A stretch of DNA of 64,000 nt from Trissonchulus latispiculum (lineage: Eukaryota; Nematoda; Enoplea; Enoplida; Ironidae): positions 23,786 to 87,785 of the forward strand of contig JASAND010019798.1 in the NCBI GenBank assembly GCA_030248195.1, in the 5' to 3' direction. Below, one piece after another: positions 26,377 through 64,000 of the stretch. The notes under the pieces were generated by a model. It did not search any database. It saw only the letters and a program-made list of their open reading frames with translations, and had not been told where the DNA came from. Position 1 is the first letter of the stretch, and each line of letters opens with the position of its first letter. A program made the position numbers and the translations under genes.

Positions 26377-26744
26377 AAAAGCATCAGGAAAACAATTAGT
26401 GGATCTGAACGCAGCATAAAGTGACTTTTATCTTGACATGGGCCGTTGATTTTGAAAATTTCCTGACAGACCGAAGCAAAATGTCGGTGCGCCGAAGGCG
26501 CAAAATTTTTCTAAAAGGATTTCTGTAGCTCAAAACCTTTACAAAGCAATCTATTAAAGTTTGCATCTGATTATCAACAGCTGAACCTTTTTGTTGTCTA
26601 GGTGAGTTTAGAAATATTGTTGGAAGAAATATATCTGGAAGAAAATATATTCAAAACTGCATAAAAACCAAACGCAAACTGGTAAATTAGCATGTTTTAC
26701 AGATAATTAATCTGATGGGGTAAGACAAATCAAAATTTAAATTT

Positions 26745-29700: not shown

Positions 29701-30530
29701 AGAGACACGCTGCTTTGCGCGAGGGTTCCAACAGTGCTGACCCCTGCGCAGAGACACGCTGCTTTGCGCGACGGTTCCAACAGTGCTGACCCCTGCGCAG
29801 AGACACGCTGCGTTGCGCGATGGTTCCAACAGTTCTGACCTCTGCGTAGAGACACGCTGCTTTGCGCGAGGGTTCCAACTGTACTGTCCCCCGCGCAGGG
29901 ACACATTGCTTTGCGCGAAGGTTCCAACAGTACTGTCCCCCGCGCAGAGACCTGTTGCTCTGCGGGAGGGTTCCAACAGTTCTGACCCCTGCGCAGAGAC
30001 ACGCTGCTTTGCGCGATGGTTCCAACAGTTCTGACCTCTGTGCAGAGACACGCTGCTTTGCGCGACGGTTCCAACAGTTCTGACCTCTGCGCAGAGACAC
30101 GCTGCTTTGCGCGACGGTTCCAACAGTTCTGACCCCTGCGCAGAGACACGCTGCTTTGCGCGACGGTTCCAACAGTTCTGACCTCTGTGCAGAGACACGC
30201 TGCTTTGCGCGATGGTTCCAACAGTTCTGACCTCTGCGTAGAGACACGCTGCTTTGCGCGAGGGTTCCAACTGTACTGTCCCCCGCGCAGAGTCCTGTTG
30301 CTCTGCGCGAGGATTCCAACAGTTCTGACCTTTGCGCAGAGACACGTTGCTTTGCGCGAGGGTTCCAACAGTGCTGACCCCTGCGCAGAGACACGCTGCT
30401 TTGCGCGAGGGTTCCAACAGTGCTGACCCCTGCGCAGAGACACGCTGCTTTGCGCGACGGTTCCAACAGTTCTGACCTCTGCGCAGAGACACGCCGCTCT
30501 GCGCGAGGGTTCCAAAAATGCTGAACCCCG
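26745..30530. repeat. 49-bp GC-rich satellite array, about 77 copies
   Basis: The unit is 49 bp, with core phrases GGTTCCAACAGTGCTGACCC, CTGCGCAGAGACACGCTGCT and TTGCGCGA. Anchors recur every 49 bp across the array. A variant unit containing TGCGTAGAGAC appears at 27739, 28033, 28327, 29208, 29502, 29845 and 30237 (spacings 294, 294, 881, 294, 343, 392, nearly all multiples of 49), so there is higher-order structure of six or more units. The array is GC-rich against AT-rich flanks. All three minus-strand frames stay open over long stretches because the unit lacks stop codons there. I read those frames as a by-product of the repeat, not as genes. Confidence 0.92.
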
Positions 30531-30531
30531 C

Positions 30532-30610
30532 ACAGGGTCTTCTGCGCAGCGCTTTGCGCTGCGCGGGGCTCACAAATTTTGCTGCGCACTGCGCGGGGGT
30601 TTCGGATTCT
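30532..30610. other. GC-rich hairpin at the satellite edge
   Basis: GCGCAGCGC-TTT-GCGCTGCGC is a perfect 9-bp stem with a 3-base loop, followed by GCTGCGCACTGCGCGGGGG. A second palindrome, CCTATACATGTATAGG, lies at about 30613-30628. Confidence 0.6.
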
Positions 30611-30696
30611 GGCCTATACATGTATAGGCCCAGTATAGGCATTGCGCATGTGTGATCGTAATTAATCAATCCCAATGTTATCAGTAGATATGAGCA

Positions 30697-31309
30697 TAGG
30701 CCCATTTCACAAAAATCTTGCAACATGAACTTGCGCTTGAGCTTGCACTTGCACTTGAACTGTAAGTTCAAGGTGTCAGTGTTTCATAAAACTTTTCCTG
30801 CTACTTGCGGAAATTAGCTAAGCAAGTTGCAAGACTTGACAACTTGTAAACACAAGTGCAACTGCAAGTTGGCAAGTAGCTGATCTTTCAAAAATTAAAC
30901 AAAAATATTTGAAAATTCATATAAATTTCAAAAATTAAAGAAATTGTTTGAAATTCACAATGTATTACGACAATAATCCAACGAGTATTGTCATAAAATT
31001 TTTCCAAAAAATATTTAATTTAAAATAAGTTATAGCAGTTTTTGTTCCTTTGTTCAGTGAAAATTCACTCAACCACTTGCACCGCAAGTGCAAGTTGCAA
31101 GTACATGTATTGACGATCTCTATGAAACAGATTCTGACCGCAAGTGTTAGCCAACAACTTGTAACTTGCGGACTTGCAACTTGCAGTTCAAGTGCAGGTA
31201 CGCAAGTACCACTTGAGGGTTTATGAAACACTTTTCTTGTAACTTTCGCATGCAAGTTGCAACTTGCATATGCAAGTTGCAAGTTTCAAGTTTTATGAAA
31301 CTGGCCCCA
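30697..31309. mobile_element. Foldback MITE with repeated ACTTGC motifs
   Basis: Left end GGCCCATTTCACAAAAATC pairs with right end TTTTATGAAACTGGCCC. Both arms carry many copies of CAAGTTGCAAGT / ACTTGCACTTG. Length about 0.6 kb, no coding. Confidence 0.6.
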
Positions 31310-48037: not shown

Positions 48038-48271
48038 TGACAAAAACTAAAGCCGAGAGCCTAATAGACTGTATTCAACAACGAATTTAATTGACAATAA
48101 AAGTGTAAACAACCAAGTCTTTGCCAAAACGTCTCAATCAAAACAATATGCAAATTAGGTTTGAGACTGAATTATGCAAATTAGTCTCACACCTAAGAAA
48201 GCTGTAGCTGGGAATGCTAACAGCAGCAAAAAACCAACGCAAACAATTTTAAATCGGGATAATTCCCGACA
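48038..48271 (-). repeat. Copy A 3' LTR
   Basis: 234 bp, TG...CA, starting TGTCGGGAATTATCCCGA (an inner palindrome) and ending TTTAGTTTTTGTCA. A short purine stretch, GGCGGGAG, precedes it and is the likely polypurine tract. Confidence 0.85.
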
Positions 48272-48284
48272 CTCCCGCCAAGAG

Positions 48285-49547
48285 TCAACGGGACGGTCCT
48301 TCATAAGGCGGTGTGGAGGCACGCTGATGCAGATATGGGGGATTCTTCATGGTTGGTCGTCTATCAATCGGATAGATTTTATCCGCAACCGAAAACGACA
48401 CCCTCTCCAAGAGAGGGAGAGCTTTGATCCATTGTCTGATCATTTGCCAAGTCCCATTAGGTGACAAGTGGAAGCCATCTTTATCAATAATATTAGGATC
48501 CACTTCCTTTCGCCAACCGGAAACAAATGGTGCACCAATAGTATACCAGTTCAGATACTTAATCCCCGTACGCTCCACTACATGATCTAGAATATAGTCA
48601 TTAAATTGGGAAACGTTTCGAGCCCCAGGCAACGGCATAGGGCCACAAAGCAAAACCGATGGGAAAGGGCGAAGACGTTGTAGTTTACGAATCAGACGGC
48701 GAAGATCGTGACACTCATCGGCCCAACTAGTAGGAGATTTAGCAACATTGACACCTCCGCTTATTACCACAATGCCATACTGCTCCGGGGATTCTTGTCT
48801 AGCAACCGCTCGAAAGTCAGAAAACGTTCCTCCTGAAAGAACGCGAGGGAAGCCTCCTTCAATATGTTTGATGTAGCGTGGAACTGAATCAGATATCAGC
48901 AGCACCGTTCTATGAAAGGACCACGCGTCAGGATCAGTTATACGATACTGCAGCAAATTGTCCACGAGCCATCTGGGGGAGGGCAAACCAAGGGCAAGTT
49001 CTGACAAAAGACGACCATAAAGATTTTGACCACGATGTTCTCCCTCCGGTGTCTGTCGGGCAAAAGATAGACCAGAGCCGCAGGACCAAACATTTTCCTT
49101 TCTGCCGGAAAGGACAATGAACTTGGGTGACAACCTAGTTCTTGAAGCCAGATCCTCCAACGTTCGATCCCAAGCAGTCCTCAAAGGACTGTTTGGGCGA
49201 TTAAGCTGATCAATAATAATCGCCATATAGAGCTCCTTGGCGTTCATCGTCCACATAGCTGAAATGTCGCACCCCTTGGCTTCAGGCCACGTAGAACAAT
49301 CAGCACCTTCACAACCCGATCTAACAAAGTCCCAGGCGGCCTGAAGGTATCCACTTTGGCGTAACGCAAGCATCCAACGGATATGTTCAACCGATGGTAG
49401 GGAAACCGAATTAGCAACGTTCTCACCGATCACAAGTTTGGGATCATGAGCATAGAATCTGGAGAGGGGATGGGTGGAACAAACATAAACAATAGAAGGA
49501 TCATTAGGATCAATTGAAGAATCCAAATTTTGAGCAGCCATTATCAT
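48285..49547 (-). CDS. BEL copy A third ORF: SGNH/GDSL hydrolase-like protein, 420 residues, intact
   Basis: Sits between integrase and the 3' LTR, where some BEL elements have an env-like gene. The C-terminal half shows the four SGNH blocks in order: block I LLISDSVPRYI (Ser221, in SDS instead of GDS), a glycine block SGG (239-240), block III VVISGGVN (Asn267), and block V DKDGFHLSPNG (Asp357, His360, the D-x-x-H pair). Beta-strand-like VVIS and PSVLLCGP segments fit the alpha/beta fold. Residues 1-210 are not recognised. There is no signal peptide or transmembrane helix. An acceptor ATAATTTTCAG lies about 20 nt upstream of the ATG, suggesting a spliced mRNA. SGNH esterase domains are known in ORF1 of CR1/L2-type LINEs; one in a BEL element is unusual to my knowledge. 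Enzymatic activity is inferred, not shown. Confidence 0.75.
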   Translation of the reverse strand: MIMAAQNLDSSIDPNDPSIVYVCSTHPLSRFYAHDPKLVIGENVANSVSLPSVEHIRWMLALRQSGYLQAAWDFVRSGCEGADCSTWPEAKGCDISAMWTMNAKELYMAIIIDQLNRPNSPLRTAWDRTLEDLASRTRLSPKFIVLSGRKENVWSCGSGLSFARQTPEGEHRGQNLYGRLLSELALGLPSPRWLVDNLLQYRITDPDAWSFHRTVLLISDSVPRYIKHIEGGFPRVLSGGTFSDFRAVARQESPEQYGIVVISGGVNVAKSPTSWADECHDLRRLIRKLQRLRPFPSVLLCGPMPLPGARNVSQFNDYILDHVVERTGIKYLNWYTIGAPFVSGWRKEVDPNIIDKDGFHLSPNGTWQMIRQWIKALPLLERVSFSVADKIYPIDRRPTMKNPPYLHQRASTPPYEGPSR

Positions 49548-49663
49548 AAAATAATATGTAAAATAACCTGAAAATTATATAATTGCACACGTCATTGTTA
49601 TCCTATACTCTAGAAAACACAAAGTAGCTTACTCACTTCCTCAAAGGAAGGAGTTGAAAAAAA

Positions 49664-50935
49664 TTAGATTTCTTCTGAACATTGAGTATAGGATTGCCAT
49701 TTTCTGCGAGCTGCAATTGCTGCTTTTCGAGCAATTTTCTCCTTATGAGGTAGTGTAGCATCTGCAGTTCCCTTCAAAGAGTCTGGCGCTTCCTCACCAT
49801 ATTCCAGTGGATAGAGTAATTTCAAAGGGCGGCGTAGGAGAGACCCAGTGGATGTGCGGACAGAAGCCGAACGGATGTGCCCATCTGAACTGGAGTGAAG
49901 ATGTTGAATCACTCCAAGGCGCCATGAAGAACGCGGAGTACCTTCTTTGATATGGACAACAGTGCCAATAGAAGGAAGCCAAGAACTCGTGCCGCGCTGT
50001 TGATGTAAAGAAACCCGTTCTCGAAGACTAAGTAGGTACTCCGTTTTCCATGATCTCCAAAAACCCTGGACAAGGCCTTGTAACCTTTTCCATCGGACCC
50101 TAAGGCTATCAGGCGAAGAATGAGGCGCGTACTCCACGTCGGATTCGCGACTAGAACAGTCTATGCCGCCAACTCTCCTCATAGGAGAGAGGAGTTGCAT
50201 AGGTGACAAAGAGGAGTCTCCTATATTACTCTCGACATAAACTAACGGCCGAGAGTTAATGACAGACACTATTTCTGAAACTAGTGTTTGAAGTTCGATG
50301 AGACTCACAAGCGACCTCAACAGAGTCTTTTTCAAAGCATTCTTAACCACGCCCACAAGCCTTTCGTAAAATCCACCCATCCACGGGGCCATCTCAGGGA
50401 GAAAAAGCCAATCTATCCCGTGGGAAACGAGAAATTCTTGCATAGCTTCTGTATTTCTAACATTAGCCCACAATTTCTTAAGAAATTTGGAGGCGGCGTG
50501 GAATTGCTTTGCATTGTCGGATACCATCACCAAAGGAGGCCCATACAATGCAACGAATCGACGAAGAGCCAACAAGAATTGTTCGGTGGTCATGTCCTCA
50601 ACCACTTCTAAATGAATCGCCCGGACAACCGCGCACGTAAACAAACAAATCCAAATTTTCTTCGGTATGCCTTCAACCTTTACAAAAAGGGGTCCCAAAT
50701 AATCAACCCCTGTATACGAAAACGGGGGTCCCTCCTCCAGACGAATCTTCGGAAGAGGGGGAACAGGCGGTAGGTGGTATCCTCCGCCTTGGATGCGACG
50801 ACAAGTACGGCAGTCACGGAGAACTCGCTTGACAGCAGCTCTGCCATGCACAATCCAGAACTTTTCTCGCACTGAAGCTAGAGTCTGTGCTACTCCAGCG
50901 TGCAGCACGTTCTTGTGGAAATTCATCACCAACAA
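49664..50935 (-). CDS. BEL copy A integrase region of pol, intact 423 residues
   Basis: Catalyses insertion of the element's cDNA. The zinc-binding part has H7-x4-H12 and C42-x2-C45 (H2C2 domain). The catalytic core has D78 in GVDYLGP, D140 in VSDNAKQF and E191 in GFYERLVG, a complete D-D-E set. The C-terminal part (VHIKEGTPRSSWRLGVIQHL) resembles the BEL integrase tail domain DUF5641. It is the downstream end of the polyprotein; its first residues overlap the frameshifted segment at 50926-51303. Ends about 116 bp before the third ORF. Confidence 0.85.
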   Translation of the reverse strand: MLVMNFHKNVLHAGVAQTLASVREKFWIVHGRAAVKRVLRDCRTCRRIQGGGYHLPPVPPLPKIRLEEGPPFSYTGVDYLGPLFVKVEGIPKKIWICLFTCAVVRAIHLEVVEDMTTEQFLLALRRFVALYGPPLVMVSDNAKQFHAASKFLKKLWANVRNTEAMQEFLVSHGIDWLFLPEMAPWMGGFYERLVGVVKNALKKTLLRSLVSLIELQTLVSEIVSVINSRPLVYVESNIGDSSLSPMQLLSPMRRVGGIDCSSRESDVEYAPHSSPDSLRVRWKRLQGLVQGFWRSWKTEYLLSLRERVSLHQQRGTSSWLPSIGTVVHIKEGTPRSSWRLGVIQHLHSSSDGHIRSASVRTSTGSLLRRPLKLLYPLEYGEEAPDSLKGTADATLPHKEKIARKAAIAARRKWQSYTQCSEEI

Positions 50936-53250
50936 ATCAATAAAGTATCCTGATTTTGGTAATAAAACAAAGGATACTTCGTTTCAAAGGAGACGTTAGC
51001 ATTATTCAACCTGCCAAAACATCTGAGCAGTCCCTGGTGATCCTTAAACACCTGTAAATTACGACAAAATCCTTTGGATGAATTAGGTTTATCAATCACA
51101 GTATTAGGAAAGCACTGTGATTGAATACGACGGACCCACCAACTAAGTGATCTAGATAGTTCCTGCTGGTTCAAAGGGCCCTCGTATCCGCGAGACGAGG
51201 TAATCTTGGCTCGACAGTTTGAGATGAATCTAAAAACATAAGCAGTAACTCGAAGTAGTTTTTGTGAACGAAGAATAGGTAGATTCGTCGATCGGCTTAT
51301 CAACTATAGCTGGAGGAATAGAAGTAACCAGACCTCTGGTTATAACGGGTGGTGCGCTCTCAGTGGAACACAGTTCCACTTGAGGCATCACGGGCCAATG
51401 AGACTCCGTGTCACACAACCATACAGGACCTGTCCACCAAGACTGTGATGTCTGTAGAGATTTCACATCACAGCCACGGCTTGGTAAATCGGCAGGATTT
51501 TCAGACGAGGGAACATATCGAAAACGTAAACCCCTAATACTACGTAGTTCTCGTAGTCGGTTCTCAACAAATCTAGTGGCCACTTGCTCACGCAACAGCC
51601 AATACAGGACACACTGTGAATCCGTCCACAGATAAGTATTTGTGATTGAAATATCGAGATACTTCATCACAAACTGAAGCAGGCGCGAACCAATAACCGC
51701 AGCAACCAGTTCCAGCCGCGGAATTGTTAGATGCTGTTTGAGAGGGGCGAGGCGGAGTTTTCGCCATTAGTAGATACGAAGAAATTGACCCGAATAGAAT
51801 TTTTCAGAACGCAAGTAAATCACAGAAGAACATGCTGAGCTGAAGCGTCACTGAAAACATGTAGCTGCAGATTCGTACATTCCGTCGTTATAGCAGTGAC
51901 GAGGCTATGCAATCGTTGATAATAGTGAAAGTTCAGAATTACAAAACGTCGCCAACTGTCGGCGGCAGTTTGTGGAAACGGATGTTCATCCCAACTGAGG
52001 CCTGCCTACATAAGTCCTGTACGCGTAATGTTTCGACCACAACGACCGGAGCAAAGAAGCCGCAAGGGTCGAATACTTGTGACAAAGTCTTTAGAATACG
52101 ACGTTTTGTGATAGTAAGAGTCTACATCGATAGTCCGAAGAGGGGCAACAACAAAGAACGTCTCGCATTTGGATCCCACTTGAGACCAAAAACCTTTGGT
52201 TCAGCTCGCGTCCCTCGATCGACAATAGGAATGTGACTAGCCACTTCTACAGAGTAAGTGTTTTCACTCACGTAGGTTCATAGAAGCGTCTGAAACCAAT
52301 TTCTTAGCCTCGAACGTATGCTGTTGATGAGCTTCTCCAGGAGAAGCTTCACCAGTGATAACATTATCGACATAAATGTCACGAAGAATACGGCGCGCCA
52401 GATCAGACCCGTCTTGCTTCAGATGAGAGAGAAACGGTGTGGTGGCCGAAAGAAGGAAAGGGCTGGAAATTACACCAAAGGGTACCCTAGTAAAGCGATA
52501 AGCAATAAGGTTGTAGCCCCAACTGGAGGTTCAGACAGATCACGCAACCACAAAAAGCGGGTGACGTCCCGTTCTGTCTGTTGCAAGCCAGCCTGCAAAA
52601 ATGCCTTTTCCAATGTCACTGACTAAAGCGACTGCATGGATACGAAACCTTAGAAGTAACCCACACAAATCCTCTAAAAAATACTGGTCCTCTGTGAAGA
52701 CAATCATTGAGACTGTTCATATCCTTGCGGGCCTTGGAGGAAGCATCGAATACAATACGTAATTTGGTAGTTGGTTTGTCAGGGCTGAATGGCGCATGGT
52801 GCGGCATATAGTAAAGGTTGTTCCCTGAAGGAACAACTAAGGAGCTTCTTCAATTATTCCCTGTTCCAACTGATTCTGGATTACCGAATTATATGCCTCC
52901 GAAGTTGCAGTCGAATCAATCCAGACGACGATGCAATGACTTCCAGCCGACCATACGCTAAGCCATAGTTATCGGAAAGCTCCATCAACGGCTTCTTCCA
53001 AGGCCATTGTACGTAGTAGCGCCCATCAACAAATTGGACAGTGGAGGAAAAAGACTGCAAAACTTCCTCATCCGCAGTACCCTTATCCTGATTTTCACGC
53101 ATGCCGAGCTCTTCCAACTCCCGAGTATCCGAGATAAGTCAGAGATGGAACTAGCAATAGGACTTAGCTGAGCTTGAAGTCCCGGAGACATATTGCCGAC
53201 ACTGTTTCAGGGCCAGATTCATCTGCAGGAACCCGCCCGGTAGCTATGAA
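50926..53250 (-). pseudogene. BEL copy A reverse transcriptase-RNase H region, frameshifted
   Basis: Pieces of one coding region in shifting frames: LNDCLHRGPVFF (RT, about 52690), the catalytic YVDN at about 52368, then RNase H with LWTDSQCVLYW (51230-51670) and the start of integrase. Each piece is matched by copy B. Several single-base gaps or gains, often in runs of one base, break the frame. Confidence 0.75.
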
Positions 53251-53353
53251 TCCCAACTTTGAGGTTCAAAAACCATAGATTAGGACCAGACTGAATACGC
53301 TCGGCTCCTATAAAGCTCGTAATAGTAGTCCATGCCAATCAAAGTGTCAATAT

Positions 53354-53725
53354 TCACTGGTTCAGCACGCTGTACAACCTGAGGCTCCAGCTAACGCCCA
53401 AGTAGGAATCACTGCCCCTGGAGATCCCAGAGTGACCTTCCAGTATTGGACAAGTGATTGCAGGCACTACACTAGCGACAATTAGAAGCGTCGATCCTTT
53501 TCTACATGGAAGTTTCCTTTCAACCATTTTGTGCTCAGCCGTTTGTGGCTGAGTATTCTGGAAGGTGGATACAGTAAGCCATTCTGACCGCACGATGGGC
53601 AAATTGAGTTCACGGCACTTTTCCTCAGTTATGAAAAACCGAGACGCTCCAGTGTCAAAAAATAAGCGTGCTTGCACACTAACACGAGAAGCACAGCTCA
53701 TGACGAATGTCAAAGCAGTTTGCAT
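53354..53725 (-). CDS. BEL copy A aspartic protease region
   Basis: Start of pol. Contains the active-site motif FFDTGASRFF (D24-T25-G26), typical of retropepsins (DUF1758-type in BEL elements). It begins at an ATG overlapping the end of gag by 16 nt in another frame. Copy B has DCG at the same place. Confidence 0.7.
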   Translation of the reverse strand: MQTALTFVMSCASRVSVQARLFFDTGASRFFITEEKCRELNLPIVRSEWLTVSTFQNTQPQTAEHKMVERKLPCRKGSTLLIVASVVPAITCPILEGHSGISRGSDSYLGVSWSLRLYSVLNQ

Positions 53726-55171
53726 GATTGTCCGATCTGTGGACTGGCTAGGAGATACAGCAATCGAAGAAACAGCCGTGCTAGAAGGAACAAAAGGCTC
53801 TGATGATGAAGATACACTGGATGCAAACTTAGCTTGTCCCGATGAGGGGGTGAGGCCCCAAACTTAGAATAGCAAAGACTAGGGATGGTGATTCTGGCGC
53901 TGACAATATTGACAGCGTTTAGCCCTACGACACTTGCGAGCAAGATGACCTTTGACCGAGACATCTGAAACAACGATCACGGAGTTGCGCCCTGCGAGAC
54001 TCAGAGTCTGTGTAGACGGAACAAGCTTCAGAAGAATGGCCACCATTGCAAAAGGCAGCAGGTCATCTCCCGACTCGCCCGTGTGGCATGCGAGCAGAGG
54101 TTGATGCTTCGTTTATAACGACTGTCTCCATGAGACCGACGTAGGCCCGCAGGAGCTTGCTCCTCCCCACGGTTGAATCGGCCGTTTCCAGAATTTTGAC
54201 TGCCTCTGTGAGACTGTCTGAATTCCTAGTTCCTGCCATATCAGATTTGCCATTTGCGGCCGCTAAGCCTACCAGCTTGCAAATGATGCAAACGCTCACC
54301 CATGTCCCTAGCTCGCAATTCCTGATGTAAACTATTCTCGCAAGTTTCATAGTGACCAATCCGGATTCCCATTTCTCTTGCGATGTGCCTCAACTTTCAG
54401 AAATCGCGGCAACTTAGACAAAATAATGGAATACAGAATCATATCCTGACCTTTACCAAGAGATTCCAGGTTGCGTAGATGGCGTTCGAGGCCATCATGC
54501 ACCGACAACAATGATGAAATATCTCCGCTAGCAGTAGGAAGCGACAAGAGCGCGCTCAATATGGGCAAAACTTCAGACCTTGTTTATCCCCATAACGTTC
54601 GTCGAGAGTTTTGACCACTTCAGCATAGCTGGCCGAGGTCACTCGGATAGTACCCTCAATCAACCGAAAGGCTTCCCTTTCAAGAGCTCCACGAAGATAA
54701 TTCAGTTTATCTATTTCGGCGAGGTCGGATCTATCGTCAATAGCAGCCTTAAAAGCATCCCAAAATTCTTGCCAACGAATGGGATCCCCCTCAAAAAGGA
54801 GGAATCTCTAATTTGGGAAGCTTCACCTTAGCCGGTCCCTCTTGAACCATTCCCTAAACTACCAGTAGCACCGACTTCGGGGACATGTTGTGTCTGGCCA
54901 ATCTGGGCATCTGCAATAGCAGCCATGACAGAATCATTGAACTGCCGTGACTGTGCAAGTTCTTGCTCAATATCCTCTTCCAAATGCAAAGATTGGAGGA
55001 CTTCAAGATCAATAGCCTCCAACTTTCTGAAGGTAAGATTGCAGCAAAACAGATTTGCGCCGCAATTGTTCCCCGGTGCCAGCCGCCGGGCTCGCCACTA
55101 ACGACTTGACCTCCCTTCATTTCACGGGAGGCACTCATGCGAAGCCCTTGACGTCGCTGCTTAGCAGACAT
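53710..55171 (-). pseudogene. BEL copy A gag, frameshifted
   Basis: Structural protein of the particle. The ATG is at 55171 (MSAK...). Recognisable pieces include LEVLQSLHLEEDIEQELAQS (near 55000) and cysteine-rich knuckle remnants near 53870-54070. Frameshifts near the start and in the middle prevent a continuous product. It ends at 53710 with the same residues as copy B (QIGQSCKLL). Confidence 0.7.
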
Positions 55172-55360
55172 CACAACAAAAGTTCTTGAATTAACCAATC
55201 AATTATTAGAATCAAATGGAGTTCCAACTGGCACCCTCCTGGCTGAAAAAAAAAGATTAATATCAATGGTGAATTGAACCTTCACCAGTGTGAAGGAACA
55301 AAAGTGAAAAAATTAAAAACTAACAGACAAATATGAGCAAAAATTTAATAAAAGTTAAAA

Positions 55361-55378
55361 GTTTCGCTCCGAGGACCA
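55361..55378 (-). promoter_or_regulatory. Copy A primer-binding site
   Basis: TGGTCCTCGGAGCGAAAC directly after the LTR, identical to copy B; TGG pairs with the CCA end of a tRNA. The tRNA species is not identified. Confidence 0.7.
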
Positions 55379-55590
55379 TGACGAAAACTAAAGCCGAGTA
55401 GGAGCCTAATAGACTGTATTCAACAACGAATTTAATTGACAATAAAGTGTAAACAACCAAGTCTTTGCCAAAACGTCTCAATCAAAAAACAATATGCAAA
55501 TTAGGCTTCTGAGATCAGAATTCATGCAAACACTAGTCTCACACCTAAGAAAGCTGTAGCTGGGAATGCTAACAGCAGCAAAAAACCATA
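55379..55590 (-). repeat. Copy A 5' LTR, truncated
   Basis: Matches the other LTRs from the CA end up to GGTTTTTTGCTGCTG, then breaks off; the first about 40 bp, including TGTCGGG, are missing. The sequence beyond is host-like. Confidence 0.75.
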
Positions 55591-56381: not shown

Positions 56382-56633
56382 CTTTAAAATCTCAATGTAA
56401 GGGAATCAATCTGTTCGTGTTTTTAATAGTAACTTGAAAGTATAATGAATAAAATAAAATTATGTAGACCAGTATTAACAACTTTTTTAATATCAGCTTT
56501 TATATGCTTAATAATTTTTCAACACGTTTAGTTGGGCACGAGGTTTAGGTTTGTTAATAATGGTATTATTGTTTATAGCTAAAAAGTTGCAAATTAAACT
56601 TGGTAAATAGTTTATCTGTTTTTAGTCAATCAG

Positions 56634-56871
56634 TGTCGGGAATTATCCCGATTTAAAATTGCTTGCGTTGGTTTTTTGCTGCTGTTAGCATTCCCAGCTA
56701 CAGTTTTCTTAGGTGTGAGACTAATTTGCATAATTCAGTCTCAAACCTAATTTGCATATTGTTTTGATTGAGACGTTTTGAAAATAATTTGTTTTGTTAC
56801 ACTTTTATTGTCAATTGGAAATTCGTTGTTGAATACAGTCTATTAGGTTCTCGGCTTTTAGTTTTCGTCCA
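56634..56871 (+). repeat. Copy B 5' LTR
   Basis: 238 bp, TGTCGGGAATTATCCCGA to TTTTCGTCCA. The first 22 bp recur at 63979-64000 as the start of the 3' LTR. Confidence 0.88.
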
Positions 56872-56889
56872 TGGTCCTCGGAGCGAAAC
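56872..56889 (+). promoter_or_regulatory. Copy B primer-binding site
   Basis: TGGTCCTCGGAGCGAAAC immediately after the LTR. Confidence 0.7.
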
Positions 56890-57075
56890 TTTTAACTTTT
56901 ATTATTTTTGCTCATATTTGTCTGTTAGTTTTTAATTTTTTCTCACTTTTGTTCCTTCACACTGGTGAAGGTTCAATTCACCTATTAGTATTAATCTTTT
57001 TTTCGGCGGAGTAGTGCCAGTTGGAACTCCATTTGATTCAATAATTTGATTGGTTAATTCAAGAACTTTGTTGTG

Positions 57076-58529
57076 ATGTCTGCCAAGAAAGTTGACGTCA
57101 TGGGCTTCTGCATGAGTGCCTCCCGTGAAATGAAGGAGGTCAAGTCGTTAGTGGCGAGCCCGGCGGCTGGCACCGGGGAACAATTGCAGCGCAAATCTGT
57201 TTTGCTGCAATCTTACCTTCAAAAATTGGAGGCTATTGATCTTGAAGTCCTCCAATCTTTGCATTTGGAAGAGGATATTGAGCAAGAACTTGCACAGTCA
57301 CGGCAGTTCAATGATTCTGTCATGGCTGCTATTGCAGATGCCCAGATTGGCCAGACACAACATGTCCCCGAAGTCGGTGGTACTGGTAGTTTAGGGGAAT
57401 GGTTCAAGAGGACCGGCTAAGGTGAAGCTTCCCAAATTAGAGATTCGTCCTTTTGAGGGGGATCCCATTCGTTGGCAAGAATTTTGGGATGCTTTTAAGG
57501 CTGCTATTGACGATAGATCCGACCTCGCCGAAATAGATAAACTGAATTATCTTCGTGGGCTCTTGAAAGGGGAAGCCTTTCGGTTGATTGAGGGCTATCG
57601 AGTGACCTCGGCCAACTATGCTGGAAGTGGTCAAAACTCTCGACGAACGTTATGGGGATAAACAAGGGATAATTTATGCCCATATTGACGCGCTCTTGTC
57701 GCTTCCTACTGCTAGCGGAGATATTTCATCATTGTTGTCGGTGCATGATGGCCTCGAACGCCATCTACGCAGCCTGGAATCGCCTAATCCAGGTCAGGAT
57801 ATGATTCTGTATTCCATTATTTTGTCTAAGTTGCCGCGATTTCTGAAAGTTGAGGCACATCGCAAGAGAAGCCAGAATCCAGATTGGTCACTAGCAAACT
57901 TGCGAGAATGGTTACACCAGAAATTGCGAGCTAGGGACATGGGTGAGCGTTTGCATCATTTGCAAGCTGGTGAGCAGTATCCGCCTTGGGAAATCTGATA
58001 TGAGCAGGAACTAGGAATTGCAGACAGTCTCACAGAGGCAGTCAAAATTCTGGAAACGTCCGATTCAACCGTGGGGAGGAGCAAGCTCCTGCGGGCCTAC
58101 GTCGGTCTCATGGAGCCAGTCGTTATAAGCAAGCATCAGCCTCCTGCTCTTGTCTCACAGGCGAGTCGGGAGATGACCTGCGCATTTTGCAATGGTGGCC
58201 ATTCTTCTGAAGCTTGTTCCGTCTACACAGACTCTGAGTCTCGCAGGGCGCAACTCCGTGATCGTTGTTTCAGATGTCTCGGTCAAGGTCATCTTGCTCG
58301 CAAGTGTCGTAGGCCTAAACGCTGTCAATATTGTCAGCGCCAGAATCACCATCCTAGTCTTTGCTATTCTAAGTTTGGGGCCCCTAAGCCTACCCATCCG
58401 GGACAAGCTAAGTTTGCATCCAGTGTATCTTCATCATCAGAGCCTTTTGTTCCTTCTAACACGGCTGTTTCTTCGATTGCTGTATCTCTAGCCAGTCCAC
58501 AGATCGGACAATCATGCAAACTGCTTTGA
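57076..58529 (+). pseudogene. BEL copy B gag with three zinc knuckles, frameshifted
   Basis: ATG at 57076 (MSAKKVD). A helical N-terminal part is followed by LPKLEIRPFEGDPIRWQEFW (57425-57484), the DUF1759 domain typical of BEL gag. Three CCHC knuckles follow at about 58178-58360: CAFCNGGHSSEAC, CFRCLGQGHLARKC and CQYCQRQNHHPSLC. Breaks occur near 57410 (GAGGACC where copy A has GAGGGACC), near 57640 and near 58000. The frame ends QIGQSCKLL-stop, overlapping the pol ATG by 16 nt. Confidence 0.8.
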
Positions 58530-59083
58530 CTTTAGTCGCGATCTGTGCTTGTGGTGTTAGTGTGCTTTCACGCTTATTTTTTGACTGTGGAGCGTCTCGG
58601 TCTTTCTTATATGAGGTTAATTGCGGTGAACTCAATTTGCCCTTCGTGCGGTCAGAATGGCTTACTGTATCCACCTTCCAGAATACTCAGCCACAAACGG
58701 CTGAGCACAAAATGGTTGAGTTTGCAGTTCCATGTAGAGATGGATCGACGCTTCTAATTGTCGCTAGTGTGGTGCCTGCAATCACTTGTCCAATACTGAA
58801 GGTCCCTTTGGGATCTCCAGGGTGTGTGAGTCTTACTTGGGCGTTAGCTGAGCCTCCTGTGCAGCGTGCTGAACTTGTGAATATTGACATTTTGATTGGC
58901 ATGGACTACTATTACAGCTTTATAGGAGCCGAGCGTATTCAGTCTGGTCCTAATCTATGGTTTTTGGAACTCAAAGTTGGGATTCAGGGCTACCTGGTGT
59001 GGGTTCCTACAGATGAATCTGGCCCTGAAACAGTGTCGGTAATGTTTTCTCCTGGACTTAGCTCAGCTAAGTCCTATTGCTAG
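58514..59083 (+). pseudogene. BEL copy B protease region
   Basis: Starts MQTALTLVAICACGVSVLSR; the active-site motif reads FFDCGASRSF, with Cys in place of the usual Thr/Ser, while copy A has DTG. This is expected to impair the enzyme. The domain continues to LNIDILIGMDYYYSF-like sequence (VNIDILIGMDYYYSF) and then shifts frame. Confidence 0.7.
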
Positions 59084-60880
59084 TTCCATCTCTGACTTAT
59101 CTCGATACTGGGAGTTGGTTGTTATCGGCATGCGTGAAAATTCAGGATAAGGGTACTGCGGATGAGGAAGCTTTGCAGTCTTTTTCCTCCACTGTCCAAT
59201 TTGTTGATGGGCGCTACTACGTACAATGGCCTTGGAAGAAGCCGTTGATGGAGCTTTCCGATAACTATGGCTTAGCGTATGGTCGGCTGAAGTCATTGCA
59301 TCGTCGTCTGATTGATTCGACTGCAACTTCTGAGGCATATAATTCGGTAATCCAGAATCAGTTGGAACAGGGAATAATTGAAGAAGCTCCTGTTGTTCCT
59401 TCAGGGAACAACCTTTACTATATGCCGCACCATAGTGTATTCAGCCCTGACAAACCAACTACCAAATTACGTATTGTATTCGATGCTTCCTCCAAGGCCC
59501 GCAAGGATATGAACAGTCTCAATGATTGTCTTCACAGAGGACCAGTATTTTTAGAGGATTTGTGTGGGTTACTTCTAAGGTTTCTGTATCCATGGAAGTC
59601 GCTTTAGTCAGTGACATTGAAAAGGTGATTTTTTGCAGGTTGGCTTGCAATGTAGACAGAACGGGACGTCACCCGCATTTTGTGGTTGCGTGATCTGTCT
59701 GAACCTCCAGTTGGGGCCAACCTTATTGCTTATCGCTTTACTAGGGTACCCTCTTTGGTGTAATTTCCAGCCCTTCCTTCTTTCGGCCACCATTTCTCAC
59801 CATCTGAAGCAAGACGGGTCTGATCTGGCGCGCCGTATTCTTCGTGACATTTATGTCGATAATGTTATCACTGGTGAAGCTTTCCCTGGAGAAGCTCATC
59901 AACATTACATTGAGGCTAAGAAATTGTTTTCAGACGCTTCTATGAACCTACGTGAGTGGTACACTAACTCTGTTTTAGCGGCTAGTCACATTCCTCATGT
60001 CGATCGAGGACGCGAAGCTGAACCAAAGGTTTTAGGTCTCAAGTGGGATTCAATGCGAGACGTTCTTTGTTGTTGCCTCTCTTTCGACCTATCGATGTAG
60101 ACTCTACTATCACAAAACGTCGTATTCTAAAGACTTTGTCACTAGTATTCGACCCTTGCGGCTTCTTTGCTCCGGTCGTTGTGGTCGGTAAATTACTCGT
60201 AAGAGGACCGGGTGGAGGTAAGGCCTGGGTTGGGATGAACCCGTTTCCAAAACTATTGCCGACAGTTGGCGATGCTTTGTGTCTGAACTTTCACTATTAT
60301 CAACGATTGCAGTTCCTCGTCAAGTGCTATAACGACGCAATGTACGAATCTGGAGCTACACGTTTTCAGTGACGCTTCAGCTGGTGCATGTTCTTCTGTG
60401 ATTTACTTGCGTTCTGAAAATCTATTCGGGTCAATTTCTTCGTATCTACTAATTGCGAAAACTCGCCTCGCCCCTCTCAAACAGCATCTAACAATTCCGC
60501 GGCTGGAACTGGTTGCTGCGGTTATTGGTTCGCGCTTTCTGCTTCAGTTTGTGATGAAGTATCTCGATATTTCAATCACAAATACTTATCTGTGGACGGA
60601 TTCACAGTGTGTCCTGTATTGGCTGTTGCGTGAGCAAGTGGCCACTAGATTTGTTGAGAACCGACTACGAGAACTACGTAGTATTAAGGGTTTACGTTTT
60701 CGATATGTTCCCTCGTCTGAAAATCCCGCCGATTTACCAAGCCGTGGCTGTGATGTGAAATCTCTACAGACATCACAGTCTTGGTGGACAGGTCCTGTAT
60801 GGTTGTGTGACACGGAGTCTCATTGGCCCGTGATGCCTCAGTGGAACTGTGTTCCACTTAGAGTGCATCATTCGTTATAA
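59077..60880 (+). pseudogene. BEL copy B reverse transcriptase and RNase H, frameshifted
   Basis: RT pieces: KLRIVFDASSKARKDMNSLN and LNDCLHRGPVFLEDLCGLLL (59460-59578), then the catalytic region RRILRDIYVDNVITG (59830-59877), with YVDN where many retroelements have YVDD. Copy A has the same residues, so YVDN is a family trait. RNase H pieces are TIPRLELVAAVIGSR and LWTDSQCVLYWL (60490-60625). The frame changes at least at 59600-59640, 60060 and 60370. Confidence 0.75.
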
Positions 60881-60916
60881 CCAGAGGTCTGGTTACTTCT
60901 ATTCCTCCAGCTATAG

Positions 60917-62595
60917 TTGATAAGCCGATCGACGAATCTACCTATTCTTCGTTCACTAAACTACTTCGAGTTATCGCTTATGTTTTTAGATTCATCTCAA
61001 ACTGTCGAGCCAAGATTAAGCTCCTCGTCTCGCGGACAGCGCGAGGGCCCTTTGAACCAGCAGGAACTATCTAGATCACTTAGTTGGTGGGTCCGTCGTA
61101 TTCAATCACAGTGCTTTCCTAATACTGTGATTGATAAACCTAATTCATCCAAAGGATTTTGTCGTAATTTACAGGTGTTTAAGGATCACCAGGGACTGCT
61201 CAGATGTTTTGGCAGGTTGAATAATGCTAACGTCTCCTTTGAAACGAAGCGGTCTCTTGTTTTGTTACCAAAATCAGGATACTTTATTGATTTGTTGGTG
61301 ATGAATTTCCACAAGAACGTGCTGCACGCTGGAGTAGCACAGACTCTAGCTTCAGTGCGAGAAAAGTTCTGGATTGTGCATGGCAGAGCTGCTGTCAAGC
61401 GAGTTCTCCGTGACTGCCGTACTTGTCGTCGCATCCAAGGCGGAGGATACCACCTACCGCCTGTTCCTCCCCTTCCGAAGATTCGTCTGGAGGAGGGACC
61501 CCCGTTTTCGTATACAGGGGTTGATTATTTGGGACCCCTTTTTGTAAAGAAACAATGCATACCGAAGAAAATTTGGATTTGTTTGTTTACGTGCGCGGTT
61601 GTCCGGGCGATTCATTTAGAAGTGGTTGAGTATATGACCGCCACCGAACAATTTTGTTGGCTCTTCGTCGATTCGTTGCATTGTATGGGCCTCCTTGGTG
61701 ATGGTATCCGACAATGCAAAGCAATTCCACGCCGCCTCCAAATTTCTTAAGAAATTGTGGGCTAATGTTAGAAATACAGAAGCTATGCAAGAATTTCGTT
61801 TCCCACGGGATAGATTGGCTTTTTCTCCCAGAGATGGCCCCGTGGATGGGTGGATTTCCATGAAAGGCTTGTGGGCGTGGTTAAGAATGCTTTGAAAAGA
61901 CTCTGTTGAGGTCGCTTGTGAGTCTCATCGAACTTCAAACACTAGTTTCAGAAATAGTGGGTTCACGGCTAACTTCGCCGTTAGCTTATGTCGAGAGTAA
62001 TATAGGGAGACTCCTCTTTGTCACCTATGCAACTCCTCTCTCCTATGAGGAGAGTTGGCGGCATAGACTGTTCTGAATGCGAACCACGTGGGAGTACGCG
62101 CCTCATTCTTCCCCTGATAGCCTTAGGGTCCGATGGAAAAGGTTACAAGGCCTTGTACAGGGTTTTTGGAGATCATGGAAAAAGGAGAACCTACTTAGTC
62201 TTCGAGAACGGGTTTCTTTACATCAACAGCGGCACGAGTTCTTGGCTTCCTTCTATTGGCCCGTTGTCCATATCAAAGAAGGTACTCCGCGTTCTTCATG
62301 GCGCCTTGGAGTGATTCAACATCTTCACTCCAGTTCAGATGGGCACATCCGTTCGGCTTCTGTCCGCACATCCACTGGGTCTCTCCTACGCCGCCCTTTG
62401 AAATTACTCTATCCACTGGAATATGGTGAGGAAGCGCCAGACTCTTTGAAGGGAACTGCAGATGCTACACTACCTCATAAGAGAAAACAAGTTCGAGCAA
62501 GCAGCAATTGCAGCTCGCAGAAAATGGCAATCCTATACCGCCAATGTTCAGAAGAAATCTTAATTTTTTTTCAACTCCTTCCTTTGAGGAAGTGA
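60917..62595 (+). pseudogene. BEL copy B integrase, frameshifted
   Basis: Zinc domain with CRTC (about 61410) and GVDYLGPLFVK (61519-61552) are readable; the second Asp (SDNAKQFHAASKF, about 61700-61750) and the Glu region are in other frames. The C-terminal DUF5641-like part is at 62077-62520. Confidence 0.75.
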
Positions 62596-62681
62596 GTAAG
62601 CTACTTTGTGTTTTCAGAGAGTATAGGATAACAATGACGTGTGCAATTATATAATTTTCAGGTTATTTTACATATTATTTT

Positions 62682-63965
62682 ATGATAATGGCTGCTCAAA
62701 ATTTGGATTCTTCAATTGATCCTAATGATCCTTCTATTGTTTATGTTTGTTCCACCCATCCCCTCTCCAGATTCTATGCTCATGATCCCAAACTTGTGAT
62801 CGGTGAGAACGTTGCTAATTCGGTTTCCTACCATCGGTTGAACATATCCGTTGGATGCTTCGTGTTACGCTTTTTTGTAAAGTTAGGAGGCCTTCAGGCC
62901 GCCTTGGGACTTTGTTAGATCGGGTTGTGAAGGTGCTGATTTGTTCTATCGGCCTGATAAGCCAAAAGTGTCACATTTCAGCTATGTGGTAGATGATTAA
63001 ACTTTTATGAGCTCTATATGGCGATTATTATTGATCAGCTTAATCGCCCAAACAGTCCTTTGAGGACTGCTTGGGATCGAACGTTGGAGGATCTGGCTTC
63101 AAGAACTAGGTTGTCACCTGTGTTCATTGTCCTTTCCGGCAGAAAGGAAAATGTTTGGTCCTGCGGCTCTGGTCTATCTTTTGCCCGACAGACACCGGAG
63201 GGAGAACATCGTGGTCAAAACCTTTTGCGGTCGTCTTTTGTCAGAACTTGCCCTTGGTTTGCCCCTCCCCAGATGGCTCGTGGACAATTTGCTGCAGTAT
63301 CGTATAATTGATCCTGACGCGTGGTCCTTTCATAGAACGGTGCTGCTGATATCTGATTCAGTTCCACGCTACATCAAACATATTGAAGGAGGCTTCCCTC
63401 GCGTTCTTTCAGGAGGAACGTTTTCTGACTTTCGAGCGGTTACATAGACAAGAATCCCCTGAGCAGTATGGCATTGTGGTAATAAGCGGAGGTGTCAATG
63501 TTGCTAAATCTCCTACTAGTTGGGCCGATGAGTGTCACGATCTTCGCCGTCTGATTCGTAAACTACAACGTCTTCGCCCTTTCCCATCGGTTTTGCTTTG
63601 TGGCCCCCATGCCGTTGCCTGGGGCTCGAAACGTTTCCCAATTTAATGACGGTCTTCGTGGATCATGTAGTGGAGCGTACGGGGATTGGGCTAATTGAAC
63701 TGGTATACTATTGGTGCACCATTTGTTTCCGGTTGTTGAAAGGAAGTGGATCCCACAGCAGGTTGATAAAGATGGCTTCCACTTGTCACCTAATGGGACT
63801 TGGCAAATGATCAGACAATGGATCAATGCTTCCCCTCTTTTGGAGAGGGTGTCGTTTTCGGTTGCGGATAAAATCTATCCGATTGATAGACGACCAACCA
63901 TGAAGAATCCCCCATATCTGCATCAGCGTGCCTCCACACCGCCTTATGAAGGACCGTCCCGTTGA
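62682..63965 (+). pseudogene. BEL copy B third ORF (SGNH hydrolase-like), frameshifted
   Basis: Same protein as in copy A, broken by several frameshifts and a short substituted stretch near 62860-62990. The catalytic blocks are still readable in separate frames: LLISDSVPRYI (63343-63375), VVISGGVNVAKS, and KDGFHLSPNGTWQM. An acceptor ATAATTTTCAG ends at 62661, 20 nt before the ATG. Confidence 0.7.
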
Positions 63966-63978
63966 CTCTTGGCGGGAG

Positions 63979-64000
63979 TGTCGGGAATTATCCCGATTTA
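63979..64000 (+). repeat. Copy B 3' LTR, first 22 bp
   Basis: TGTCGGGAATTATCCCGATTT after the polypurine-like GGCGGGAG at 63971-63978; the rest lies beyond the window. Confidence 0.85.

What the first reader, a model, noticed from the sequence alone, without database searches (positions are those of the whole stretch)
48285..49547. A BEL/Pao retrotransposon carrying an SGNH/GDSL hydrolase-like third ORF
Seen: an intact 420-residue frame between integrase and the 3' LTR with Ser221 in LLISDSV, SGG at 238-240, Asn267 in ISGGVN, and Asp357/His360 in DGFH, in the order and spacing of the SGNH fold. The same motifs survive in the broken copy B. Known: SGNH esterase domains occur in ORF1 of CR1/L2-like LINEs; extra ORFs at this position in LTR elements are usually env-like membrane proteins. 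This one has no signal peptide or membrane anchor. Inference: an independently captured hydrolase working in the element's cycle.
Basis: partly seen in the sequence, partly recalled or inferred. Interest (0 to 1): 0.88.

Follow-up and report, generated by a model that had tools for sequence, protein, structure and literature searches.

The report
Two-domain extra gene in retrotransposons
In one genome, some LTR retrotransposons of two different superfamilies (BEL/Pao and Gypsy) carry related copies of the same extra gene right after integrase; it is predicted to join an ADP-ribose-handling (NADAR-type) domain to an SGNH esterase, is likely made from a spliced RNA, and would point to an element-borne enzyme acting on some host-made chemical mark or on membranes.

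Summary
The 420-aa frame is real, on the minus strand (49547 to 48285), between a BEL integrase and the 3' LTR. Its C-terminal half is an SGNH hydrolase (Pfam GDSL_2 E 2.8e-5; profile-profile score 100.7, decoys at most 16.8). The host genome holds many divergent relatives: the ORF follows BEL integrases (21 of 96 places, a lower bound; none upstream) and, in 11 fetched loci, Gypsy integrases. Ser221, Gly239, Asn267 and His360 are invariant in 20 of 20 members; dN/dS is 0.18 against the nearest distinct family. NADAR ligand tryptophans are kept but its catalytic acid and lysine are lost here; clear NADAR-SGNH fusions exist elsewhere in the genome. TTTCAG precedes the ORF in 18 of 20 (1.1 expected), and one Gypsy copy looks like a reverse-transcribed spliced RNA (protease joined in frame to ORF3). 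Precedents: GDSL ORF3 in bdelloid Vesta elements, NADAR in Ectocarpus Gypsy Pol. The NADAR-SGNH ORF shared by BEL and Gypsy is a new variant; folds rest on profiles, and the substrate is untested.

The parts
48285..49547 (-). ORF3 of BEL element A, 420 codons: NADAR-derived domain plus SGNH hydrolase domain
48936..49490 (-). NADAR-derived domain, about residues 20-204 (E54, W58, Q64, W99, E151, W154, G157, G173, N175, Y177, G178)
   Evidence: profile-profile match of the family's N-half with YbiA plus 10 phage NADARs, score 76.9, 30 decoys at most 16.9; residue counts
48402..48914 (-). SGNH hydrolase domain, about residues 212-382 (S221, G239, N267, D357, H360)
   Evidence: Pfam PF13472 E 2.8e-5, 25.1 bits, under the 32.9 cut-off; profile-profile score 100.7, 30 decoys at most 16.8
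49568..49574 (-). putative 3' splice acceptor TTTTCAG just 5' of ORF3
   Evidence: read; TTTCAG in 18 of 20 members, 1.12 expected
49664..50983 (-). BEL-type integrase frame (Integrase_H2C2, DUF5641)
51230..51766 (-). open piece with Peptidase_A17 match (Pao-type pol), 1.7e-12
53354..53863 (-). open piece with weak aspartyl protease match (5e-4, under the cut-off)
54556..54807 (-). open piece with DUF1759 match (8.6e-18), a domain of BEL-type gag (that label is recalled)
48038..48271 (-). 3' LTR, starting TGTCGGG; end at 48038 shared by copies on two other contigs
55379..55588 (-). 5' LTR of A, outer end missing
56632..64000 (+). inverted copy B of the same family, cut off by the window end; frames broken
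62655..63965 (+). ORF3 of copy B, in broken frames

Best explanation
The frame is the third ORF of a BEL/Pao retrotransposon and encodes what profile matches predict to be a two-domain protein, a NADAR-derived domain followed by an SGNH esterase, likely expressed from a spliced RNA that skips reverse transcriptase and integrase. Shown by sequence: related ORFs sit directly 3' of integrase in several BEL families and in two divergent groups of Gypsy elements of one genome; the SGNH residues are invariant and dN/dS between intact families is well below 1; in this clade the NADAR part keeps the tryptophans that match ligand-binding ones but lacks the lysine and the catalytic acid; one Gypsy copy carries the protease-to-ORF3 junction expected from GT-AG splicing. 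Inferred: the SGNH domain is an active esterase, and the NADAR-derived domain no longer cuts N-glycosidic bonds but holds a nucleotide-sugar (ADP-ribose-like) group. Proposed mechanism: the protein works as an accessory enzyme in the element's cytoplasmic or particle stage, recognising an ADP-ribose-type mark put on element RNA, cDNA or Gag/Pol by the host and removing an ester-linked group with the SGNH site, so that it counters a host defence. It is probably not an envelope.
For: Anatomy. SGNH: Pfam 2.8e-5; profile-profile E 3e-15, score 100.7, 30 decoys at most 16.8, with TesA's catalytic blocks aligned to S221/G239/N267/H360; S, G, N, H in 20 of 20, D357 in 16 of 20. NADAR: Pfam at E up to 10 in 8 of 20, best 7.6e-7, of which four are seen under 1e-3; profile-profile E 1e-11, score 76.9, 30 decoys at most 16.9, reversed 11.4, other half 10.9; fusions L010 (NADAR 1.2e-17, GDSL 4.4e-8, both over cut-off) and L025 (2.1e-21; GDSL 6.8e-7, under cut-off) in the same genome, aligning with the ORF3 family over 307 columns. 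Spread. Selection: dN/dS 0.181 over 415 codons against L035 (first 204 residues 0.143, rest 0.215; integrase 0.114). Splicing: L067 joins two stretches of the C11856 element whose edges read GCAACG|GTGAGT and TTTCAG|GTGCGG, 98.4% and 99.0% identical, about 2.86 kb missing, in frame; TTTCAG in 18 of 20, and 7 of those 18 have no in-frame ATG between it and the first conserved block. Lost NADAR catalysis: the lysine place is not K in 20 of 20; no acid in line with YbiA's Glu eight residues before the Trp; W99 and W154 20 of 20, D/E151 19 of 20, read against PMC11543638 (passages).
Against: No significant match to any solved structure: for the family profile the two hits are a Csm4 chain (E 0.72, unrelated) and GDSL-like lipase 3p94 (0.81). 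The single-sequence AlphaFold model was uninformative (pLDDT 35.5), so the folds rest on profiles alone. P0001 itself gives no Pfam NADAR hit and only E 0.15 with my NADAR profile; its NADAR assignment leans on relatives. The SGNH match of P0001 is below Pfam's gathering score (25.1 against 32.9 bits), and 6 of the 10 GDSL hits in the family are weak (E 0.02-0.15). The first-204-residue part is less constrained than the rest in two of the other pairs (L050-L052 0.396 against 0.138; L053-L057 0.951 against 0.165), though there it includes letters upstream of the acceptor and, in L057, a shifted frame. The two edges of the L067 junction share 4 nt, so a deletion at microhomology is not excluded. 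The splice copy is from a Gypsy relative; for the BEL element only the acceptor is seen and no donor was identified. No activity, substrate, expression or particle association is shown. Only 21 of 96 BEL integrase places have the ORF nearby (a lower bound), so many BEL families may do without it.
Confidence: 0.45

Rival explanations
1. Lipid or membrane esterase: the SGNH domain binds or hydrolyses lipids to help the element's particle assemble on, enter or leave membranes, as proposed for ZfL2-1 ORF1p and for the GDSL ORF3 of Vesta; the NADAR-derived half is then only a scaffold or RNA-binding module.
For: ZfL2-1 esterase is active on esters and binds negatively charged phospholipids (PMC3905857, abstract and passages); a role in passing host membranes was suggested for GDSL ORF3 (PMC5408684, passages). 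Invariant SGNH residues. In two of the other pairs the N-terminal part is the less constrained one.
Against: Does not explain the invariant ligand-side tryptophans of the NADAR half or its low dN/dS of 0.143 in the pair P0001-L035. This protein has no strongly hydrophobic stretch, though that is a weak point against lipid binding at the surface.
Confidence: 0.33
2. Structural relic: both domains are catalytically dead and kept as binding or multimerising modules (Oskar's SGNH domain is called non-catalytic in PMC3905857, passage).
For: NADAR catalytic residues are lost in 20 of 20; D357 is lost in 4 of 20, three of them near-copies.
Against: S221, G239, N267 and H360 invariant at 24-30% identity is what an active SGNH site predicts.
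Confidence: 0.17
3. Envelope substitute: the ORF at env position, made from spliced RNA as env is, serves cell-to-cell spread.
For: Position and likely spliced expression are env-like.
Against: Highest 19-residue hydropathy 0.80 in this protein; the three highest values in relatives (1.64-1.90) start within the first 22 residues of frames that were taken from stop to stop, at or before the acceptor, and 1.63 in L055 lies in the SGNH core. Two enzyme-type domains instead. PMC5408684 argues the same for Vesta GDSL ORFs (passages).
Confidence: 0.05

Closest known systems
GDSL esterase/lipase ORF3 of Vesta LTR retrotransposons and Athena elements, bdelloid rotifers (Rodriguez et al. 2017, PMC5408684; abstract and passages seen)
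   Same: SGNH-type ORF as third ORF in LTR retrotransposons; ORF types shared between unrelated retroelements
   Different: There in Vesta and in Penelope-like Athena; BEL and Pao do not occur as whole words in the held text. Here a NADAR-SGNH fusion in BEL and Gypsy elements, with a likely spliced retrocopy
NADAR in Ectocarpus Gypsy Pol (N-terminal) and in Tx1 LINE ORF1 of Crassostrea gigas (PMC12477816, passages)
   Same: YbiA-family NADAR domain carried by retrotransposons
   Different: Different position (within Pol or ORF1), no SGNH partner mentioned in the passages read; the NADAR there is called highly conserved, here it is degenerate in this clade
SGNH ORF after the tyrosine recombinase in Ngaro elements (PMC9210276, passages)
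   Same: SGNH ORF downstream of the integration enzyme
   Different: YR retrotransposon, no NADAR mentioned in the passages read
ZfL2-1 ORF1p esterase of CR1-clade LINEs (PMC3905857, abstract and passages)
   Same: SGNH esterase encoded by a retrotransposon
   Different: ORF1 with a coiled coil, upstream of pol; no NADAR mentioned in what I read
YbiA and DarT1-associated NADAR (PMC11543638, passages)
   Same: N-terminal domain by profile; E54 and the two tryptophan positions
   Different: Catalytic acid and lysine missing here

Membership tests
SGNH/GDSL hydrolase superfamily | Four blocks with invariant Ser, Gly, Asn, His in order | tested here: met
   20 of 20 for S221, G239, N267, H360; D357 16 of 20; aligned to TesA blocks
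SGNH/GDSL hydrolase superfamily | Significant profile similarity | tested here: met
   Pfam 2.8e-5, below gathering score; hhalign E 3e-15 against decoys
SGNH/GDSL hydrolase superfamily | Alpha/beta/alpha fold | tested here: inconclusive
   single-sequence model pLDDT 35.5; no significant solved relative
SGNH/GDSL hydrolase superfamily | Esterase activity | not testable with these tools
   -
NADAR (PF08719, YbiA-like) | Profile similarity over the domain | tested here: met
   8 of 20 members by Pfam at E up to 10, best 7.6e-7, none of those seen over the family's cut-off; hhalign score 76.9, decoys at most 16.9; P0001 alone not significant
NADAR (PF08719, YbiA-like) | Catalytic acid (Glu, Asp or His) and the Lys of E-x6-K | tested here: not met
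   absent in 20 of 20 of this clade; an acid at that place is read by eye in L010 (Glu) and L025 (Asp). Filed as NADAR-derived, not as a NADAR enzyme
BEL/Pao retrotransposon | Pao-type peptidase region, DUF1759 gag, DUF5641 integrase end, LTRs | tested here: met
BEL/Pao retrotransposon | Target-site duplication | tested here: inconclusive
   flanks of A differ (CCATA against ATCAG), but A's 5' LTR is truncated
Vesta-type GDSL ORF3 | Sequence descent from the same GDSL ORF | not tested
   Vesta sequences not at hand
env-like ORF | Transmembrane anchor or fusion protein | tested here: not met
   hydropathy; no env family in Pfam scans
env-like ORF | Spliced subgenomic mRNA | tested here: inconclusive
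   likely spliced retrocopy in a Gypsy relative; acceptors in 18 of 20; no RNA data

The most novel reading that the evidence does not exclude
LTR retrotransposons of two superfamilies have passed between them a two-domain counter-defence enzyme: an NADAR pocket that has lost its glycosidase chemistry captures ADP-ribosyl groups placed on element nucleic acid or protein by host PARP-like enzymes, and the attached SGNH site cuts the ester bond, making it a new kind of ADP-ribosylation eraser carried by mobile DNA and expressed by env-style splicing.
Probability: 0.17. Interest if true: 0.92.

Novelty: new variant of a known kind. Interest (0 to 1): 0.7.

Why it matters
ADP-ribose-handling domains occur in animal RNA viruses and phages, where they are thought to undo host defences (PMC9503650, passages). 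Finding one fused to an esterase, in ORFs with a purifying-selection signal and apparently exchanged between BEL/Pao and Gypsy elements, would suggest that LTR retrotransposons meet the same defence, and would give a testable job to 'extra' third ORFs that are usually called env-like or unknown. The likely spliced retrocopy shows how such an ORF could be expressed.

Tried and rejected
Protein database searches with P0001 (whole, and residues 205-385) and with the 20-member alignment found nothing. Viral contigs: nothing for ORF3, integrase, the alignment or L025. Solved structures: nothing significant. Single-sequence AlphaFold: uninformative. A short GTGAGT...TTTTCAG intron in the gap between integrase and ORF3 was considered and dropped: that donor is absent in L035-L037. 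L038, L045, L058 and L061 were compared with the window element as possible BEL spliced copies: none shows a clean junction. Copy A against copy B as a selection test was dropped because the differences are patchy. The number of Gypsy integrases without the ORF and a genome-wide NADAR count were not obtained: server busy.

Statements that something is not in print rest on these searches of one open-access library alone.

Full report
What is there. On the minus strand a BEL/Pao element (copy A) runs from a truncated 5' LTR at 55588 to the end of its 3' LTR at 48038. Open pieces match DUF1759, aspartyl protease (weakly), Peptidase_A17 and integrase (Integrase_H2C2 plus DUF5641). After the integrase stop, ending at 49664, comes a 116-nt gap, then the 420-codon frame 49547-48285, ending 13 nt before the 3' LTR. 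Copy B (plus strand, from 56632) is broken; its agreement with A is not independent evidence, because differences lie in patches rich in indels with long identical runs between.

Family in the host genome. The host genome is held (733.8 Mb, 21,732 contigs, unnamed). A six-frame search with the protein gave 103 matches from the 100 of 375 candidates that were scored. Three are identical over 420 residues (the window and two other contigs), two full-length ones are 68-69% identical, several are pieces, and many of the rest are near full-length frames at 23-34% identity, some with stops. A search with a Gypsy-associated member gave 97 matches from 96 of 498 candidates. These counts are lower bounds, as the tool says.

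Genomic position. Of the 96 BEL integrase places returned (96 of 2044 candidates scored), 21 have an ORF3 place on the same strand within 1.5 kb downstream; none has one upstream and none on the other strand within 3.5 kb. Two of the 21 are pieces of one integrase (C17029), and two are copies A and B of the window. As the ORF3 searches were capped, 21 is a lower bound. In the fetched loci the ORF is directly 3' of a BEL integrase in L026 (same place as L063), L035, L036, L037, L050, L051, L052 and L065, besides near-copies of the window family (among L032-L034, L039-L044 and L046-L049), and of a Gypsy-type integrase in L053, L055, L056, L057, L059, L064, L066, L068, L069, L071 and L072. Pfam was run on four of those Gypsy integrases (L055, L056, L057, L059; rve in four, Integrase_H2C2 in three) and on two BEL ones (L026, L051; DUF5641 in both); the others rest on tblastn with the window and L056 integrases. 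No integrase was seen upstream at L054, L060, L067 and L070 (about 50 nt from its end) or at the partial copies L038, L045, L058 and L061; L038 has a Gypsy-type match downstream only. In contig C14541 the BEL integrase and ORF3 matches both report a 2251-residue open frame, so they seem to be one frame there.

Two domains. C-half: Pfam GDSL_2 at E up to 10 in 10 of 20 family members, four of them under 1e-3 (best 3.4e-6), and PF19040 SGNH in one (2e-4). A profile of TesA and seven other SGNH domains of this genome, none of them ORF3 of this clade, aligns with score 100.7 (E 3e-15), against at most 16.8 for 30 column-shuffled decoys, with TesA's blocks on S221, G239, N267 and H360. N-half: I recognised the NADAR pattern by eye in the Gypsy-associated members; Pfam then gave NADAR at E up to 10 in 8 of 20, four seen under 1e-3 (L066, L068, L069, L072; best 7.6e-7), and a profile of YbiA plus ten phage NADARs aligns with score 76.9 (E 1e-11), against at most 16.9 for 30 decoys, 11.4 reversed and 10.9 for the other half. 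P0001 alone does not reach significance for NADAR, and one member (L071) gave no Pfam hit at all. Some of the 20 are near-copies (L053/L057/L060, L050/L052, L070/L071). In the same genome L010 and L025 are clear NADAR-SGNH fusions (NADAR 1.2e-17 and 2.1e-21; GDSL 4.4e-8 and 6.8e-7), and they align with the ORF3 family over 307 columns. L010 lies behind a frame that matches a Gypsy-type integrase weakly (tblastn 4.5e-9, 30%); the setting of L025 is unknown. Solved structures gave nothing significant.

Residues. Of 526 columns 17 are invariant in 20 sequences: W58, Q64, W99, W154, G173, Y177, G178, D220, S221, G232, G239, G265, N267, H360, G365, W373 and Y392. Against solved NADARs (PMC11543638, passages: E43, K50, W89, E125, D130, W133 of P. 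nicotianae), E54 is E in 14, D in 5 and Q in 1; the Lys place is never K; W99 and W154 match W89 and W133; D/E151 matches D130 in 19 of 20; the catalytic acid is absent. The matching to P. nicotianae numbers is mine, through YbiA. One script row (labelled V148) read column 145 by mistake; the loss of the acid is read from the unaligned strings that the same call prints.

Selection and history. P0001 against L035: dN 0.227, dS 1.258, ratio 0.181; first 204 residues 0.143, rest 0.215; integrase 0.114 (dS is near saturation, so the ratio is approximate). Of the eight other pairs seven could be computed, from 0.148 to 0.473. By halves the N part is clearly higher in two pairs (L050-L052 0.396 against 0.138; L053-L057 0.951 against 0.165), where it includes letters upstream of the acceptor and, in L057, a shifted frame; in L064-L067 the C part is higher (0.658, on 6 changes). 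In a 21-row tree (L060 left out as a near-copy) Gypsy-associated ORFs L053, L055, L056, L057 and L059 group with the BEL ORFs (96/94) apart from the other Gypsy ORFs, so an exchange between superfamilies is the simplest reading. The tree does not force it: starred branches require only one change of label, 27% of bootstrap trees split BEL from Gypsy cleanly, and the direction depends on long outgroup branches.

Expression. A TTTCAG lies within 140 nt upstream of the first conserved block in 18 of 20 (1.12 expected by shuffling each window); the other two have TTTTAG and GTTTAG; in 7 of the 18 there is no in-frame ATG between it and the block. L067 (contig C7936) is 98.4% identical to part of the C11856 element up to the end of its protease, then jumps about 2.86 kb to ORF3 and continues at 99.0%; in C11856 the two edges read GCAACG|GTGAGT and TTTCAG|GTGCGG, and the joined frame of 771 codons is open. 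This is what a reverse-transcribed spliced RNA would leave. The edges share 4 nt, so a deletion at microhomology is possible, though it would have to hit a GT-AG pair by chance. No such copy was found for the BEL element.

Function. Inferred only. Kept SGNH residues, lost NADAR catalytic residues and kept ligand-side residues suggest a binding pocket plus an esterase. NADARs of animal RNA viruses are thought to act on ADP-ribose marks made by host defence (PMC9503650, passages); the SGNH domain of a LINE acts on esters and binds lipids (PMC3905857, abstract and passages). I favour a counter-defence esterase, with lipid handling as main rival. On checking I lowered the first from 0.50 to 0.45 (and the novel case from 0.18 to 0.17) and raised the lipid and relic rivals, because the half-by-half dN/dS is mixed.

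Known or new. GDSL ORF3s in LTR elements (PMC5408684), SGNH after YR in Ngaro (PMC9210276) and NADAR in Gypsy Pol and Tx1 (PMC12477816) are in print. The fused ORF, its presence in BEL/Pao and its sharing with Gypsy were not found in the searches.

Noticed in passing
L060:2-1213 (+); L086:1848-2990 (+); L067:349-2661 (-): Gypsy-type elements of this genome carry a UPF1-like SF1 helicase piece (Pfam AAA_12, E 6e-40, 1.9e-21 and 3e-31; 'UPF1-like' is recalled) fused upstream of the retroviral-type protease, in L086 behind a Ty3-like gag. One paper search returned a single paper on an insect cell line, not opened.
   Followed up: partly
G000 contig C14541:16361-18904: BEL integrase and ORF3 matches both report a 2251-residue open frame, a different expression layout.
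   Followed up: no
L001, L004, L007, L014, L022, L030: SGNH domains in other long frames (about 500-1500 residues); in the three scanned (L001, L004, L014) the rest has no Pfam match.
   Followed up: partly
window 26657-30800: 49-bp tandem array, about 75 in-register copies, that yields long overlapping open frames likely to be spurious.
   Followed up: no
window 48250-55588 and 56669-64000: Inverted copies A and B differ in clustered, indel-rich patches with identical runs up to 219 nt, suggesting assembly error or gene conversion.
   Followed up: partly
window 49637-49649 (-): TTCCTTTGAGGAA, a short palindrome 3' of the integrase stop, is also present in L035, L036 and L037.
   Followed up: no
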